In this document: one piece after another, positions 4,364 through 25,751 of the stretch | How the letters are laid out: every line of letters begins with the position of its first letter | Position numbering within the stretch: position 1 is the stretch's first letter | Assembly (NCBI GenBank): GCA_001897515.1 | Contig: MKTA01000015.1 | Span: 372,001-436,000 of the forward strand | DNA: 64,000 nucleotides | Direction of reading: 5' to 3' | Source: Bacteroidetes bacterium 41-46 | GTDB taxonomy: Bacteria > Bacteroidota > Bacteroidia > Bacteroidales > UBA932 | Notes under the pieces: generated by a model | Databases searched by the model: none | What the model saw: the letters and a program-made list of their open reading frames with translations, nothing else | Told to the model about the DNA's origin: nothing | Program-made: the position numbers and the translations under genes

Positions 4364-4777
4364 ATGAAGAGATCAGCTAAAAAAACGGAAGATATGGGAC
4401 CTGCCGAAACACTGCAGATTTTCCCCAATGCAAGAAAATACAAGACAAACTTAACCTCAAAATATAAAAACAGAAAGGTGTGGAAAAGGCCCGATCCGCA
4501 GGAGATACTCTCCGTGATACCGGGTGTTGTTACATCACTAACTGTAGCTGAGGGGGCTCATGTTGCAAAAGGGGATGAGATCATGGTCTATGAGGCTATG
4601 AAGATGCAGAATATAATAAGGGCTCCCTTTGACGGTACCATTGAAAAGATACATGTGCAACCGGGTGAGAAGATTGCCAAAGGAGTCCTGATGATCTACC
4701 TTAAGTCCGATGTAGAGTTTGTCTATGAGGATATAGATGACGATATCAGCGCCATCGTTCCAGATCCAGTCGGATAA
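4364..4777 (+). CDS. Biotin carboxyl carrier protein
   Basis: This small acyl-CoA carboxylase subunit carries biotin between active sites. It has 137 residues. The biotinyl domain occupies about residues 48-118 and contains the biotin-acceptor motif EAMKM with Lys80. The first ~45 residues are basic and poorly structured, and an acidic tail (EDIDDDIS) follows the domain. It starts 1 nt after the carboxyltransferase stop codon and must be translated with it. Its last 32 nt overlap the convergent rodA gene. It could equally be the gamma subunit of a methylmalonyl-CoA decarboxylase; the partner genes that would decide this are not nearby. Confidence 0.92.
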   Translation: MKRSAKKTEDMGPAETLQIFPNARKYKTNLTSKYKNRKVWKRPDPQEILSVIPGVVTSLTVAEGAHVAKGDEIMVYEAMKMQNIIRAPFDGTIEKIHVQPGEKIAKGVLMIYLKSDVEFVYEDIDDDISAIVPDPVG

Positions 4778-22325: not shown

Positions 22326-23228
22326 ATGAGAACTTATGGCACCTTTATAGCAGACGTTAAGCTTCTTCTATCGCCTCTTTACGGCATAGAGGAGGCAAAG
22401 GCAATAGGAATTAGGTTGCTGGAGAGTGTTTGCGGAGCCTCTGTGTGGGAGCATATTGTTGAACCGGAGAGGGTAATTGACCAGGTGAGCTCAGAGTCTC
22501 TTGATAAAATGGTTAAGGAGTTGCTCCGAGGAAGGCCACTACAGTATGTCACAGGAGTTCAGCAATTTATGGGGAGGGATTTTAAAGTCTCAGAGGGGGT
22601 TTTGATACCAAGACCAGAGACAGAGGAGCTTGTATTATGGATTAAGGATGAGTACCGGTCAGGATCAACTCTTAAAATTTTAGATGCCGCAACCGGTTCC
22701 GGCTGTATTGGTGTTTCATTGGCATGTGAGCTTCCAGGGGCAGAGGTTTATATGACAGATATCTCCTCAAAGGCCCTGAAAATATCAAAGGAAAATTCGG
22801 AGAGAATTTGCTCAGAGGAGAGATTGAAAAGGGCAAATGTCAAAAATCCGGTAATATTCAGGGCAGATCTTTTGACGGGAGCCTTGAGTCAGACCATTTT
22901 TAGCGGAGGAACATTAGATATTATTGTAAGCAACCCGCCATATGTTTTAGAGTCTGAGAAGAGTTTAATGAGGAGTAATGTGCTGGATTATGAACCTCAC
23001 GAAGCTCTCTTTGTCCCTGATTCAGACCCGCTTCTGTATTATAAGGCTTTGGCAAGTTGGGCAAAGGATCTGCTTAAGGATGGTGGGGCTCTCTATATGG
23101 AGCTTAATGAGGCTAAGGGGCTGGAGACTGCCGAGCTTTTTATGGAGAGGGAGTTCTGTGATGTAGAGTTAAGAAACGATTTAAATGGAAAAGTGAGAAT
23201 GCTGCGTTGCATTTACAGAGAAAATTGA
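22326..23228 (+). CDS. prmC: Release factor glutamine methyltransferase
   Basis: This SAM-dependent enzyme methylates the GGQ glutamine of RF1 and RF2. It has 300 residues. An N-terminal helical domain has GRPLQYVTGVQQF and LIPRPETEELV, followed by the Rossmann methyltransferase with LDAATGSGCIG and the catalytic motif IVSNPPYV. The frame is open upstream to 22293, but the ATG at 22326 follows the previous stop by 1 nt and gives the normal N-terminus. The promoter of the trp leader begins on the nucleotide after its stop codon. Confidence 0.95.
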   Translation: MRTYGTFIADVKLLLSPLYGIEEAKAIGIRLLESVCGASVWEHIVEPERVIDQVSSESLDKMVKELLRGRPLQYVTGVQQFMGRDFKVSEGVLIPRPETEELVLWIKDEYRSGSTLKILDAATGSGCIGVSLACELPGAEVYMTDISSKALKISKENSERICSEERLKRANVKNPVIFRADLLTGALSQTIFSGGTLDIIVSNPPYVLESEKSLMRSNVLDYEPHEALFVPDSDPLLYYKALASWAKDLLKDGGALYMELNEAKGLETAELFMEREFCDVELRNDLNGKVRMLRCIYREN

Positions 23229-23236
23229 TACTTTTG
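23229..23236 (+). promoter_or_regulatory. Predicted -7 box for the trp leader and trpB2
   Basis: TACTTTTG followed by C matches TAnnTTTG and starts on the base after the prmC stop codon. The leader ATG is 14 nt downstream, so the 5' untranslated region would be about ten bases. That places transcription initiation just ahead of the leader peptide, as attenuation requires. Confidence 0.65.
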
Positions 23237-23250
23237 CAACAATAGAAGAG

Positions 23251-23340
23251 ATGGGAATAAAGTTGTCAAATATTCAGTCATGGTGGTGGCACAAATCAAA
23301 TATGATTTGTGAGCTGTCTGCTATGCCGTTGCATCTGTAA
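23251..23340 (+). CDS. Tryptophan leader peptide (29 aa, three consecutive Trp)
   Basis: A 29-codon frame starts at ATG 23251 and ends at TAA 23340. It reads MGIKLSNIQS, then WWWH (Trp codons at 23281-23289), then 15 further residues. AGAAGAG directly upstream could act as a weak ribosome-binding site. Three adjacent tryptophans in so short a peptide, placed between a promoter and a terminator ahead of trpB2, mark it as a sensor of charged tRNA-Trp rather than a functional protein. A ribosome stalled on these codons would cover 23290-23298 and change the folding downstream. The frame is too short for normal gene callers. Confidence 0.85.
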   Translation: MGIKLSNIQSWWWHKSNMICELSAMPLHL

Positions 23341-23402
23341 TAAGAGATATTGTATATCAAAGGAAACGCAAGGTCCGGAGCTCACGCTCCGGGCCTTTTT
23401 TT
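23290..23402 (+). promoter_or_regulatory. trp attenuator: pause hairpin, antiterminator pairing and terminator
   Basis: Three mutually exclusive pairings can be drawn. Hairpin 1:2 is a perfect 9-bp stem, CACAAATCA (23290-23298) with TGATTTGTG (23303-23311) and a 4-base loop, beginning right after the Trp codons. Antiterminator 2:3 pairs GTGAGCT (23309-23315) with AGCTCAC (23379-23385). Terminator 3:4 pairs 23372-23381 with 23386-23395. With Trp scarce, a ribosome stalled on the Trp codons hides segment 1 and favours 2:3, so transcription enters trpB2. With Trp plentiful, 1:2 and then 3:4 form and transcription stops. The pairings are exact; the mechanism is inferred from the enterobacterial trp model. 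Confidence 0.8.
23372..23402 (+). terminator. Intrinsic terminator of the trp attenuator
   Basis: GGTCCGGAGC (23372-23381) pairs with GCTCCGGGCC (23386-23395) over ten positions with one G-U wobble and a TCAC loop, followed by seven T (23396-23402). It lies 22 nt before the trpB2 ATG, not at the end of a gene. It is the only strong hairpin-plus-T-tract noticed in the window. Confidence 0.9.
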
Positions 23403-23424
23403 ATAATTTAAAATGTAAATCAAT

Positions 23425-24696
23425 ATGAGAAAGAAATTCATTCTTGAGGAGAGTGAACTGCCAAAAAGGTGGTACAACATTAAGGCGGATCTTGCAAAGA
23501 GCCCGGATCCGTTACTTAATCCGTCAACAAAGGAGCCGTTAAAGCCGGTGGAGATGGAGGGGCTTTTTGCAAAAGAGCTGGTTAATCAGGAATTTTCTAA
23601 TGAGAGGTGGATAGATATACCTGAAGAGGTCCTTGAGATGTATAAAATCTACAGGCCTACACCACTTGTCAGGGCTTACGGTCTTGAGAGAGCTCTTGAT
23701 ACTCCGGCAAGGATATACTTCAAGAATGAGAGTGTCAGCCCGGTGGGTTCTCACAAACTGAACACAGCTATACCACAGGCCTACTATAATAAAGTGGAGG
23801 GAATAAAGAGACTGACAACCGAGACTGGTGCCGGACAGTGGGGCTCAGCAATGAGCATAGCATGTCGCCATTTTGGTCTGGAGCTGGATGTATTTATGGT
23901 GAGGCAAAGCTACGACGCAAAACCATACAGGAGAGTCCTGATGAACTCATATGGAGCATCTGTGCATGCCTCCCCCTCAGAAAAAACCGAATTTGGGAGG
24001 AGCCTTCTTAACTCAAAACCAGAAGAAAGGGGAAGTTTAGGTATAGCTATCTCAGAGGCAGTAGAGGCAGCTGTTAGCCATGATTCAGCAAGATATACAC
24101 TAGGGAGTGTGCTTGACCATGTACTAATACACCAGTCAATAATCGGGCTTGAAGCAGAGATGCAGATGGAGATGGCGGGAGTGATGCCGGATAAGGTAAT
24201 AGCCTGTTTTGGAGGAGGGTCTAACTTTGCCGGAATAGCCTTCCCATTTATCAGACACAATATTAAGGCAATTGCGGCAGAACCAGCTGCCTGCCCAAAG
24301 CTAACCAGGGGTGAATTCAGATATGACTATGGGGATACAGCGGGTCTTACCCCGCTTATACCTATGTTTACTCTGGGCCACGACTTCTCTCCTGAGCAGA
24401 TACACGCTGCAGGTCTAAGATATCATGGCGGGGGAAGACTCCCAAGCCACATGAAGCGGGAGGGCCTTATTGACAGTGCAGCTGTTGATCAGGATGAGGC
24501 TTTTGCAGCTGGACTCATATTTGCCAGAAGCGAAGGAATACTCCCGGCACCTGAGAGTACTCATGCAATTGCTGTGGTTTTGAGAGAGGCTTTAAAGGCA
24601 AAGGAGGCCGGAAAGTCAGAGGTGTTACTATTCAATTTGTCTGGACACGGACTTCTTGACCTTGCAGCATACGAGGATTTTTTGCCTAAAATATGA
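23425..24696 (+). CDS. trpB: Tryptophan synthase beta chain, TrpB2 type
   Basis: This PLP enzyme condenses indole with serine to form tryptophan. It has 423 residues and follows the TrpB2 pattern: an N-terminal extension with PKRWYNI, the PLP lysine in SPVGSHKLNTA (Lys111), TGAGQWGSA and the phosphate loop FGGGSNFAG. TrpB1 enzymes are shorter and lie next to trpA; no trpA is present here, as expected for TrpB2. Some authors have questioned the physiological role of TrpB2. Here the Trp-rich leader and attenuator directly upstream argue that it serves tryptophan formation or salvage of indole. Confidence 0.93.
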   Translation: MRKKFILEESELPKRWYNIKADLAKSPDPLLNPSTKEPLKPVEMEGLFAKELVNQEFSNERWIDIPEEVLEMYKIYRPTPLVRAYGLERALDTPARIYFKNESVSPVGSHKLNTAIPQAYYNKVEGIKRLTTETGAGQWGSAMSIACRHFGLELDVFMVRQSYDAKPYRRVLMNSYGASVHASPSEKTEFGRSLLNSKPEERGSLGIAISEAVEAAVSHDSARYTLGSVLDHVLIHQSIIGLEAEMQMEMAGVMPDKVIACFGGGSNFAGIAFPFIRHNIKAIAAEPAACPKLTRGEFRYDYGDTAGLTPLIPMFTLGHDFSPEQIHAAGLRYHGGGRLPSHMKREGLIDSAAVDQDEAFAAGLIFARSEGILPAPESTHAIAVVLREALKAKEAGKSEVLLFNLSGHGLLDLAAYEDFLPKI

Positions 24697-24705
24697 GCAT
24701 ATTTG

Positions 24706-24713
24706 TACATTTG
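24706..24713 (+). promoter_or_regulatory. Predicted -7 box for the EamA transporter
   Basis: TACATTTG followed by C matches TAnnTTTG and ends 12 nt before the ATG at 24726, so the transporter may be expressed apart from attenuated trpB2 transcripts. Confidence 0.5.
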
Positions 24714-24725
24714 CACCACTAAAAA

Positions 24726-25751
24726 ATGGTTATGCAGTACTTTGGCGAAATTATATCAATAGCGGTGGCTGTCTCATGGACATTCACCGCTCTGTTCTTT
24801 GAGTTTGCTGGTAAGAGAATAGGATCTCTCTCTGTAAATCTGTTAAGACTCCTGTTTGCCTTTTTTCTCCTGGGTGGGATGCTCTTTATTACAACCGGAT
24901 CCTTTCTTCCTGCAGAGGCAGATGGCAAAACATGGCTATGGATGACTCTTTCAGGCCTTGTCGGATTTGTATTTGGGGATCTGTGTCTATTCTATTCCTA
25001 CACAATTATCACAGCCAGGTTTTCACAACTTCTGATGACCCTTGCACCACCCTTCGCTGCGTTTTTTGGATGGATTTTGCTTGGTGAGAGCCTTTCACCT
25101 ATGGGATTTCTGGGAATGGCAGTGACAATGTTTGGTATAGGGATATCCATACTAAAGAGGGGAGGTACTAAAAACGGAGATGCTACGGCAATTGCCGGCA
25201 CCAGCCATATGGCAGTGGTAACATGTTGCGAAAAGGAGAAAAAAAGCTTTGTGAAAAAGATGATGCCGGATGTTGAACTTCATCTTCCTATGAAGGGGGT
25301 TTTACTTGGAATAGGTGCCGCTTTGGGCCAGGGTTTCGGAATAGTGCTAAGTAAAGTGGGGATGAATCACTACTCAATCTCAGCACAGGGGACAGAGGTT
25401 GCCTCTTATATACCTTTCGCAGCTACACATATGAGAATTATAAGCGGAGCGATAGGCTTTGCCCTGATAATTGTGCTGACAGGAAGACTAAAGATACTGC
25501 GGGAAGGTGTTAAGGACCGCAAAGCAATGGGCGCAACCTTTATGGGCTCAATATTTGGCCCATTCCTTGGAGTATCGCTCTCTCTGCTTGCAGTTCAAAA
25601 TGCTAATACAGCAGTAGCATCAACAATTATGGCGACAACTCCTATTATTATTCTGCTTCCTTATGTATTGCTCTATAAGAAAAAGGTAACATGGGTTGAG
25701 ACGCTTGGAGCTGTGCTGAGTGTTGTGGGTGTATCCCTGTTCTTTCTCTAG
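24726..25751 (+). CDS. EamA/DMT-superfamily transporter
   Basis: This inner-membrane drug/metabolite transporter has 341 residues and about ten hydrophobic helices in two EamA repeats (about residues 1-140 and 190-340). A polar linker of about 50 residues rich in lysine and threonine separates them. Members export amino acids, purines or other small metabolites. It starts 29 nt after trpB2, so an aromatic amino acid or indole is a possible substrate, but it has its own promoter box and no sequence feature fixes the substrate. It ends 13 nt before the convergent radA. Confidence 0.85.
   Translation: MVMQYFGEIISIAVAVSWTFTALFFEFAGKRIGSLSVNLLRLLFAFFLLGGMLFITTGSFLPAEADGKTWLWMTLSGLVGFVFGDLCLFYSYTIITARFSQLLMTLAPPFAAFFGWILLGESLSPMGFLGMAVTMFGIGISILKRGGTKNGDATAIAGTSHMAVVTCCEKEKKSFVKKMMPDVELHLPMKGVLLGIGAALGQGFGIVLSKVGMNHYSISAQGTEVASYIPFAATHMRIISGAIGFALIIVLTGRLKILREGVKDRKAMGATFMGSIFGPFLGVSLSLLAVQNANTAVASTIMATTPIIILLPYVLLYKKKVTWVETLGAVLSVVGVSLFFL

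What the first reader, a model, noticed from the sequence alone, without database searches (positions are those of the whole stretch)
23229..23425. Complete tryptophan-type transcription attenuator upstream of trpB2
Within 196 bp the sequence contains a promoter box, a 29-codon frame with three adjacent Trp codons, a perfect 9-bp hairpin starting at the base after those codons, a 7-bp alternative pairing (23309-23315 with 23379-23385), and a 10-bp GC terminator with seven T. The alternative pairing shares bases with both neighbours, so the three structures exclude each other in the way classical enterobacterial trp attenuation requires. Leader-peptide attenuation is best documented in Proteobacteria and Actinobacteria. 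A fully readable case in a Bacteroidota trpB2 gene, with an expected 5' leader of only about ten bases, is worth describing.
Basis: partly seen in the sequence, partly recalled or inferred. Interest (0 to 1): 0.85.

Follow-up and report, generated by a model that had tools for sequence, protein, structure and literature searches.

The report
Tryptophan attenuator that targets terminator loop
A stretch of RNA in front of a tryptophan-making gene in a Bacteroidales-type bacterium looks like a switch that reads tryptophan supply through a stalling ribosome, and in this bacterial family the switch seems to grip the loop of the stop signal rather than one of its arms, as the textbook version does.

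Summary
A 29-codon frame with three Trp codons is followed by a 9-bp hairpin, a terminator with seven T, and a 7-bp alternative helix (23309-23315 with 23379-23385), all upstream of trpB2.

It is not chance. In the window's family 42 of 82 trpB2 upstream regions carry a WWW leader (2 of 1640 shuffles). Leader hairpin and terminator covary.

The reading as a Trp attenuator is well supported by sequence; there are no expression data. 'Classical' needs correction. In this family the antiterminator strand is specifically complementary to the terminator apex (loop plus a few bases of either arm), not to the 5' arm (swap test, 34 family clusters: z -9.7 against +0.2). Ten leaders from other classes show the classical 5'-arm signal. 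Apex pairing leaves a stable lower stem (mean -11.0 kcal/mol), so antitermination would have to be kinetic or pseudoknotted. That step is inferred.

No trpA, trpC or full trpE was found in the genome, so the switch controls a lone trpB2, probably for indole salvage.

Verdict: new variant of a known kind. Leader-peptide attenuation was already suspected in Flavobacterium psychrophilum (PMC9723704).

The parts
23229..23236 (+). TACTTTTG, match to the TAnnTTTG -7 box of Bacteroidota promoters; expected start of transcription a few bases downstream
   Evidence: Sequence. Consensus TAnnTTTG named in PMC9723704 (passage). Box within 40 nt upstream of an in-frame ATG in 44 of 63 leaders; 149 of 3150 shuffled stretches held one within 60 nt. 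Start site inferred, not mapped.
23251..23337 (+). leader peptide ORF MGIKLSNIQSWWWHKSNMICELSAMPLHL with stop TAA
   Evidence: WWW in 42 of 82 family regions. Translation not shown.
23281..23289 (+). three adjacent Trp codons (regulatory codons)
   Evidence: invariant in the 16-sequence alignment A1
23290..23311 (+). hairpin 1:2 (23290-23298 with 23303-23311, loop AATA), begins at the base after the Trp codons
   Evidence: -9.8 kcal/mol. The 8 pairs counted are 96.0% paired in A1, 3 of them with changes on both sides. Own-specific complementarity in the wider set, z -5.9.
23309..23315 (+). antiterminator strand (region 2), GTGAGCT; the best helix starts 19 nt after the last Trp codon
   Evidence: swap tests
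23379..23385 (+). antiterminator target (region 3), AGCTCAC: last 3 bases of the terminator 5' arm plus the whole TCAC loop
   Evidence: With a stalled-ribosome mask and RNA up to 23385 or 23388 the MFE structure pairs it with 23309-23315.
23370..23402 (+). intrinsic terminator: 10 bp GC-rich stem 23372-23381/23386-23395 (12 with A-U pairs), loop TCAC, T run 23396-23402
   Evidence: -22.6 kcal/mol. Terminator helix 94.9% paired in A1, 3 of 10 pairs with changes on both sides.
23425..24696 (+). trpB2, TrpB-like PLP enzyme, the regulated gene
   Evidence: NF009057 2e-203 and TIGR01415 6.2e-183, both over cut-off

Best explanation
It is a ribosome-mediated transcription attenuator for trpB2 whose antiterminator works on the terminator loop. 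RNA starts a few bases before the leader ATG and a ribosome starts on the leader at once. With enough Trp-tRNA the ribosome passes the three Trp codons, hairpin 1:2 (or the ribosome itself) holds region 2, the terminator forms and trpB2 is not transcribed. With too little Trp-tRNA the ribosome waits on the Trp codons and covers the 5' arm of hairpin 1:2, so region 2 is free. As soon as the terminator loop leaves RNA polymerase, region 2 pairs with it and with the neighbouring stem bases. This blocks nucleation of the terminator hairpin long enough for polymerase to pass, and trpB2 is made. In this genome TrpB2 stands alone and probably joins scavenged indole with serine. Shown: parts, conservation, covariation, apex-specific complementarity, gene content. 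Inferred: start site, stalling, antitermination, its kinetic nature, the enzyme's substrate.
For: WWW leader in 42 of 82 family regions, shuffles 2 of 1640. All 63 leaders taken further (55 family, 8, three duplicate records included) have a terminator by a permissive criterion.

Hairpin 1:2 and terminator: 95.4% of cells paired in A1, covariation 0.403 against 0.221 shuffled, 0 of 500 (the shuffles do not remove relatedness).

Best helix covers 3 or more loop bases in 31 of 38 leader clusters (shuffle mean 7.8, maximum 14) and starts 17-20 nt after the last Trp codon in 24 of 38 (shuffle mean 2.7, maximum 7). Family clusters alone: 27 and 21 of 34.

Swap test: own apex -14.15 against -9.15 +/- 0.43 kcal/mol, 0 of 10000; one leader per group (18 groups) also 0 of 200 in every draw. 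Family only, z -9.7. No such signal for the 5' arm, the 3' arm or a longer interrupted helix to the lower 5' arm.

With the stalled-ribosome mask and RNA to 23388 the MFE holds the 2:3 helix.

Covariance model R1 gives one match in the own genome; its 30 best hits in the family all lie in front of trpB2. About 16 of these 30 are the leaders the model was built from, so about 14 are new.

Trp-operon leaders of the family show apex pairing too, more weakly.
Against: Once the terminator 3' arm is out (RNA to 23395 or 23403), the terminator is the more stable fold even with the ribosome stalled. Blocking the apex leaves a 9-bp stem of -13.9 kcal/mol in the window, and a mean of -11.0 in 31 clusters, so equilibrium alone does not explain antitermination.

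With the ribosome placed at the stop codon, five pairs of 2:3 still form beside 1:2 until the 3' arm emerges.

2:3 is nearly invariant within the near relatives and shows no covariation there (232 of 500 shuffles as high); the covariation is seen only between genera.

In 7 of 38 clusters the best helix covers fewer than three loop bases. Only 17 of 38 are individually below p 0.05.

27 of 82 family regions showed no W(x)W leader in the scan; two of these, L103 and L131, have one further upstream.

Of 29 trpE loci of the family, 13 gave no leader in the stretch held.

No RNA or expression data of any kind.
Confidence: 0.72

Rival explanations
1. Ordinary classical attenuator: the 7-bp 2:3 helix is simply a short antiterminator that displaces the terminator, as in E. 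coli trp, and its position at the apex has no meaning.
For: All the classical parts are present in the classical order. The 2:3 helix shares three bases with the 5' arm. E. coli region 2 starts 15-16 nt after the key codons (as I chose them) in 4 of 6 leaders, close to the 17-20 nt here. E. coli his and the gammaproteobacterial L240 also cover three loop bases, besides 5 and 8 of the 5' arm.
Against: In 38 clusters own-specific complementarity lies at the apex and not in the 5' arm (z -11.5 against -0.1; family only -9.7 against +0.2), whereas ten leaders from other classes of the phylum show it in the whole 5' arm (z -4.0, with a weaker apex signal of -1.9). In L015, L083 and L154 the helix takes loop plus 3' arm, with at most one 5'-arm base.
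Confidence: 0.13
2. Region 2 and the terminator loop form a kissing pseudoknot while the lower terminator stem still forms; the switch acts through this tertiary contact (slower hairpin closure or changed contact with RNA polymerase) rather than by preventing the stem.
For: Lower stem stays stable with the apex occupied (29 of 31 clusters at -5 kcal/mol or better). In the window lower stem -13.9 plus 2:3 helix -9.7 to -12.6 is about as stable as the full terminator, -22.6, before any pseudoknot penalty.
Against: No energy model used here scores pseudoknots. In L020, L134, L153 and L161 the helix takes 11-17 bases, which would also open much of the upper stem.
Confidence: 0.25
3. The leader regulates translation of trpB2 or RNA stability rather than transcription termination.
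For: Flavobacterial mRNAs lack Shine-Dalgarno sequences (passage of PMC9723704), and in Ignavibacteria-type relatives (L008, L012, L014) Trp leaders have no terminator.
Against: A strong terminator with a T run lies between leader and gene in the window, and all 63 leaders taken further have a predicted terminator.
Confidence: 0.06
4. Not a regulator: a chance small ORF before an ordinary prmC terminator.
For: prmC ends at 23228, so a terminator downstream of it is expected anyway.
Against: WWW enrichment, covariation and own-specific pairing. Covariance model R1 matches 19 genomes of the genus, own included, and its 30 best hits in the family lie in front of trpB2, about 14 of them not used to build it.
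Confidence: 0.02

Closest known systems
E. coli trp operon attenuator (trpL)
   Same: Leader ORF with tandem Trp codons, GC-rich terminator with U run, alternative helix starting 15 nt after the last Trp codon; hairpin 1:2 just after the codons (recalled)
   Different: There region 2 pairs with five 5'-arm bases and no loop base, and blocking them leaves -0.8 kcal/mol; here it pairs with the apex and leaves -13.8. Here the leader stop lies downstream of region 2, and the target is a lone trpB2.
Trp attenuators of Corynebacterium and Streptomyces, including trpB2A of C. diphtheriae (PMC1262725, passages seen)
   Same: Trp-codon leader, antiterminator and terminator hairpins, one case before a second trpB
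   Different: The paper describes complementary triples gGCC-rGCy-GGCC, which I read as region 2 imitating the terminator 3' arm; no loop-directed pairing is described in the passages seen
Leader-peptide candidates in Flavobacterium psychrophilum (PMC9723704, passages seen)
   Same: Same phylum, amino-acid biosynthesis operons, leader-peptide attenuation proposed
   Different: No sequences or pairing geometry, and no mention of trpB2, in the passages seen
LEU element of actinobacterial leuA (PMC1262725, passages seen)
   Same: Leader peptide combined with a pseudoknot-type alternative structure
   Different: Its base stem pairs the leucine codons with the Shine-Dalgarno box; the passages seen do not describe a loop-directed antiterminator

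Membership tests
Ribosome-mediated leader-peptide transcription attenuators | short ORF with tandem codons for the amino acid made by the regulated gene | tested here: met
   WWW at 23281-23289; 42 of 82 family regions
Ribosome-mediated leader-peptide transcription attenuators | hairpin 1:2 adjoining the key codons | tested here: met
   9 bp from 23290; covaries; own-specific in the wider set, z -5.9
Ribosome-mediated leader-peptide transcription attenuators | intrinsic terminator before the structural gene | tested here: met
   23370-23402, found by pattern scan; covaries
Ribosome-mediated leader-peptide transcription attenuators | alternative helix sharing bases with both 1:2 and the terminator | tested here: met
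   shares 23309-23311 and 23379-23381; favoured with a stalled-ribosome mask until the 3' arm emerges; a shorter 5-pair form can coexist with 1:2
Classical enterobacterial geometry (E. coli trp type) | antiterminator sequesters the terminator 5' arm so that no stable terminator stem is left | tested here: not met
   no own-specific 5'-arm complementarity; residual stem mean -11.0 in 31 clusters, against -1.3 or weaker in 5 of 6 E. coli leaders (his -18.8)
Rfam RF00513 Trp_leader | match at the gathering score | tested here: not met
   no Rfam family reaches its gathering score in the window
Ribosome-mediated leader-peptide transcription attenuators | termination changes with charged Trp-tRNA | not testable with these tools
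   needs RNA data
TrpB2 (TrpB-like PLP enzymes, TIGR01415 / NF009057) | match over the curated cut-off | tested here: met
   608.3 bits against 518.85; 675.9 against 366
TrpB2 (TrpB-like PLP enzymes, TIGR01415 / NF009057) | joins indole and serine to tryptophan | not testable with these tools
   needs an enzyme assay

The most novel reading that the evidence does not exclude
A family of Bacteroidales uses an attenuator architecture in which the antiterminator strand is matched to the loop of the terminator hairpin and stops it at nucleation or by a kissing pseudoknot, instead of sequestering an arm. It is used for both lone trpB2 and whole trp operons and evolves by changing loop and strand together.
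Probability: 0.6. Interest if true: 0.75.

Novelty: new variant of a known kind. Interest (0 to 1): 0.62.

Why it matters
Attenuation is a textbook case of RNA folding controlling transcription, taught with an antiterminator that sequesters one arm of the terminator. Here many leaders of one family keep pairing to the terminator loop while the sequence of both partners changes, although the lower stem remains stable on paper. That makes an old question, whether antitermination is a matter of equilibrium or of timing, directly testable with loop and compensatory mutants. It also gives a Trp-reporting element for Bacteroidota, where I found few such switches in print, and shows that a Trp switch sits on a lone trpB2 in genomes where trpA and trpC were not found.

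Tried and rejected
Chance ORF: rejected by shuffles, the reverse-complement control and the covariance model. Known Rfam element: none at gathering score. A longer interrupted antiterminator that also takes the lower 5' arm: tested with and without bulges, no signal (z +0.4, +0.6 and +0.4); a target that adds the loop to the 5' arm does give a signal (z -7.1), as the apex reading predicts. Covariation of 2:3 within near relatives: none, because the sequence is almost invariant there.

Those two pair with 8 and 6 bases of the 5' arm plus 3 and 1 loop bases. So the comparison rests on six E. coli leaders plus these two. In E. coli his the best helix covers three loop bases, far downstream (R+42).

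Rows dropped before counts: L004, L115 and L121 as duplicates of L085, L002 and L003, leaving 60 leaders in 38 clusters, of which 34 are family and four (L015, L020, L024, L037) lie elsewhere. In the phylum sample L195 was left out as spurious (WLWE frame), and L170, L181, L207, L209 and L216 for lack of a terminator. Of 16 trp-operon leaders, L308, L311, L312 and L315 were left out of the swap test as near copies; several of the remaining 12 are still alike. Of 85 family genomes over the trpB2 cut-off, 82 upstream regions were read; the places not read lay at a contig start (G028, G065) or were partial (G099). Of 100 phylum-sample genomes over the cut-off, 69 upstream regions were read (30 loci, 39), three of them under 200 nt.

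Literature: nine text searches. Lopatovskaya 2010, a comparative survey of attenuation cited in PMC4833913 (passages), is not held. Its content was not seen, so it may already list Bacteroidota cases.

Full report
What is there. The window lies at G000:C15:372001-436000 of a 2.47 Mb, 93% complete genome in 34 contigs. Two named records whose contig lengths equal those of family members, PHDT01000008.1 (Bacteroidetes bacterium HGW-Bacteroidetes-10, G089) and DHQY01000009.1 (Bacteroidales bacterium UBA5326, G040), place it in Bacteroidota by inference. Between prmC (stop at 23228) and trpB2 (23425-24696; NF009057 and TIGR01415 over cut-off) lie, in order: a TAnnTTTG box 23229-23236; the leader ORF 23251-23337 with Trp codons 23281-23289; hairpin 1:2 (23290-23298/23303-23311); region 2 (23309-23315); and the terminator (23372-23381/23386-23395, loop TCAC, T 23396-23402), whose bases 23379-23385 are the region 3 target. 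The coordinates of the ORF, hairpin, alternative pairing and terminator in the finding were reproduced. The RNA folds better than all 200 shuffles, z -3.85. No Rfam family matches at gathering score.

Conservation. The closest trpB2 relatives, L002 (78% identical) and L003 (76%), carry the same arrangement. In the window's family 85 of 149 sampled genomes have trpB2 over the cut-off; 82 upstream regions were read, the window's included. A WWW leader occurs in 42 of 82 and a W(x)W leader in 55 of 82; shuffled regions give 2 and 71 of 1640, reverse complements 0 and 3 of 82. Two of the 27 negatives, L103 and L131, have a leader further upstream. The 63 leaders taken further (55 family, 8, three duplicate records included) all have a terminator by a permissive criterion. 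A covariance model from 16 leaders of three genera gives one match in the own genome and matches 19 genomes of the genus, own included, at E up to 0.01 (G158 of the same genus had none); its 30 best hits in the family all precede trpB2, about 16 of them being the leaders it was built from. In A1 hairpin 1:2 and the terminator are 95.4% paired with covariation 0.403 against 0.221 shuffled, 0 of 500; these shuffles do not remove relatedness.

Where it is absent. No WW leader was found upstream of trpB2 in the Proteiniphilum, Leyella, Cryptobacteroides and Prevotellaceae loci (L005, L013, L016, L019, L031; two of these hold under 180 nt upstream), nor in the two other genomes of the same order in the phylum sample (L218, L219). 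In that sample 69 regions were read; 10 had a WW leader with terminator that I accept (L163-L168, L179, L180, L196, L212), all outside the window's class. L195 was dropped as spurious; L170, L181, L207, L209 and L216 have a W(x)W frame but no terminator by my criterion. Three Ignavibacteria-type loci (L008, L012, L014) have Trp leaders without a terminator.

The unexpected geometry. I compared the segment after the Trp codons with the terminator hairpin in each leader. The 38 clusters are 34 of the family plus L015, L020, L024 and L037 from elsewhere in Bacteroidales and Flavobacteriales. The best helix covers three or more loop bases in 31 of 38 (shuffle mean 7.8, maximum 14 of 38 in 300 shuffles) and starts 17-20 nt after the last Trp codon in 24 (mean 2.7, maximum 7); for the family alone 27 and 21 of 34. 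In the 31, the helix takes on average 3.1 bases of the 5' arm, 4.0 of the loop and 1.9 of the 3' arm. In genus g1 it is loop plus 5' arm (TGTGAGC with GCTCACG); in g19 and L015/L017 loop plus 3' arm; in L020, L134, L153 and L161 it is 11 to 17 bases across the apex. The sequences differ between genera while complementarity stays. A swap test, which pairs each leader with the terminator of others, gives own apex -14.15 against -9.15 +/- 0.43 kcal/mol, 0 of 10000 permutations, also with one leader per group (18 groups). With a tighter apex the z is -11.5, while the whole 5' arm gives -0.1 and the whole 3' arm -0.1; family only, -9.7, +0.2 and -0.1. A longer interrupted helix to the lower 5' arm gives +0.4 to +0.6. 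Ten leaders from other classes show instead the classical whole 5'-arm signal (z -4.0, 2 of 3000), with a weaker apex signal (z -1.9, 117 of 3000), so the test can see the classical form. Five of six E. coli K-12 leaders pair in the 5' arm with 0-1 loop bases; his is the exception. Against the reading: 7 of 38 clusters cover fewer than three loop bases, and 21 of 38 are not individually below p 0.05.

Same in trp operons. Of 29 trpE loci of the family, 16 have a Trp leader with terminator before trpB or trpE; 13 gave none in the stretch held. In the 12 kept after dropping near copies the apex gives the only clear signal (own -11.88 against -9.67, 16 of 3000), weaker because the set is small and similar. 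Three of the 12 (L310, L316, L325) have no loop base in their best helix, though L310 and L316 do have an apex helix as well. In genus g1 only G064 has trpA and trpC over the cut-off (1 of 25 each). Its trpE scores 411.6 bits; no family genome reaches the 517.7-bit cut-off of that model (0 of 199). That operon carries its own WWW leader, with GGATTC against the apex G|AATC|C, although its best helix by energy is another one with one loop base.

How it would work. With the ribosome parked on the Trp codons (bases to 23295 or 23301 masked), RNA ending at 23385 or 23388 folds with region 2 on the terminator loop; with RNA to 23395 or 23403 the terminator wins. The full terminator is -22.6, the stem left with the apex occupied -13.9, the 2:3 helix -9.7 to -12.6, hairpin 1:2 -9.8. 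With the ribosome at the stop codon, 1:2 and five pairs of 2:3 form together until the 3' arm emerges, then 1:2 and the terminator. Over 31 clusters the residual stem averages -11.0 and is -5 or better in 29; in five of six E. coli leaders it is -1.3 or weaker. So if the apex helix prevents termination it must act by timing, blocking loop closure while polymerase passes the T run, or by a pseudoknot. This is the main unproven step. The usual 17-20 nt offset fits the edge of a ribosome stalled on the Trp codons, with the 5' arm of hairpin 1:2 covered and region 2 just free; the footprint size is recalled, not measured here.

Gene context. The own genome has no trpA or trpC match, a single trpB-type match, trpB2, and only a partial trpE-like match of 100.6 bits, likely a related chorismate enzyme. 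At 93% completeness a missing contig cannot be excluded, but 24 of 25 genus genomes, some of them incomplete, lack trpA and trpC over the cut-off. TrpB2 then most likely salvages indole; this is inference from recalled TrpB2 chemistry.

Comparison with print. Leader-peptide attenuation is known in Proteobacteria and Actinobacteria (PMC1262725, passages; PMC2965389, passages). PMC9723704 (passages) reports strong clues in F. psychrophilum and names the TAnnTTTG box; PMC7366714 (passages) mentions leader-like small ORFs in B. thetaiotaomicron. None of the passages seen describes trpB2 leaders in Bacteroidota or loop-directed antiterminators; nine searches listed no paper whose title or shown abstract does, in an open-licence library that lacks most subscription journals. 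It is a leader-peptide attenuator by architecture, but fails the 5'-arm test of the classical form; hence new variant of a known kind.

Noticed in passing
L232:4421-4549 (G064:C7): The one genus member with trpA and trpC over the cut-off has a separate WWW leader (MSKQLQNNVWWWLTKSQIGFCW, 4421-4489) and terminator (4521-4549) before its trp operon, besides the leader on its trpB2.
   Followed up: partly
L008, L012, L014 upstream of trpB2: Ignavibacteria-type leaders end in WW(W)LSC with the stop inside a CTTTCC/GGAAAG hairpin and no terminator by my criterion, perhaps a translational or other form of the switch.
   Followed up: no
L163, L164, L166, L168 upstream of trpB2: Leaders of other classes of the phylum share WW to WWWW runs and a very similar terminator (AAGCCGTGGATGGT|AGA|ACCGTTCACGGCTT in L166) with pairing mainly to the 5' arm.
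   Followed up: partly
family leaders, e.g. L089, L094, L106, L117: In 20 of the 44 leaders with a TAnnTTTG box the gap from box to leader ATG is 9 nt or less, so these leader ORFs may be read from nearly leaderless RNA.
   Followed up: partly
24706-24713 and 24726-25751: The next gene is a transporter with weak similarity to aromatic amino-acid exporter YddG (23.1 bits, cut-off 300), behind its own TACATTTG box, so perhaps a separate transcript.
   Followed up: no
L303-L326 (16 loci with a leader): In 14 of the 16 trp-operon leaders the next ORF looks like trpB and in 2 like trpE (judged by eye from the printed starts), so trpB often stands first in this family's trp operons.
   Followed up: no
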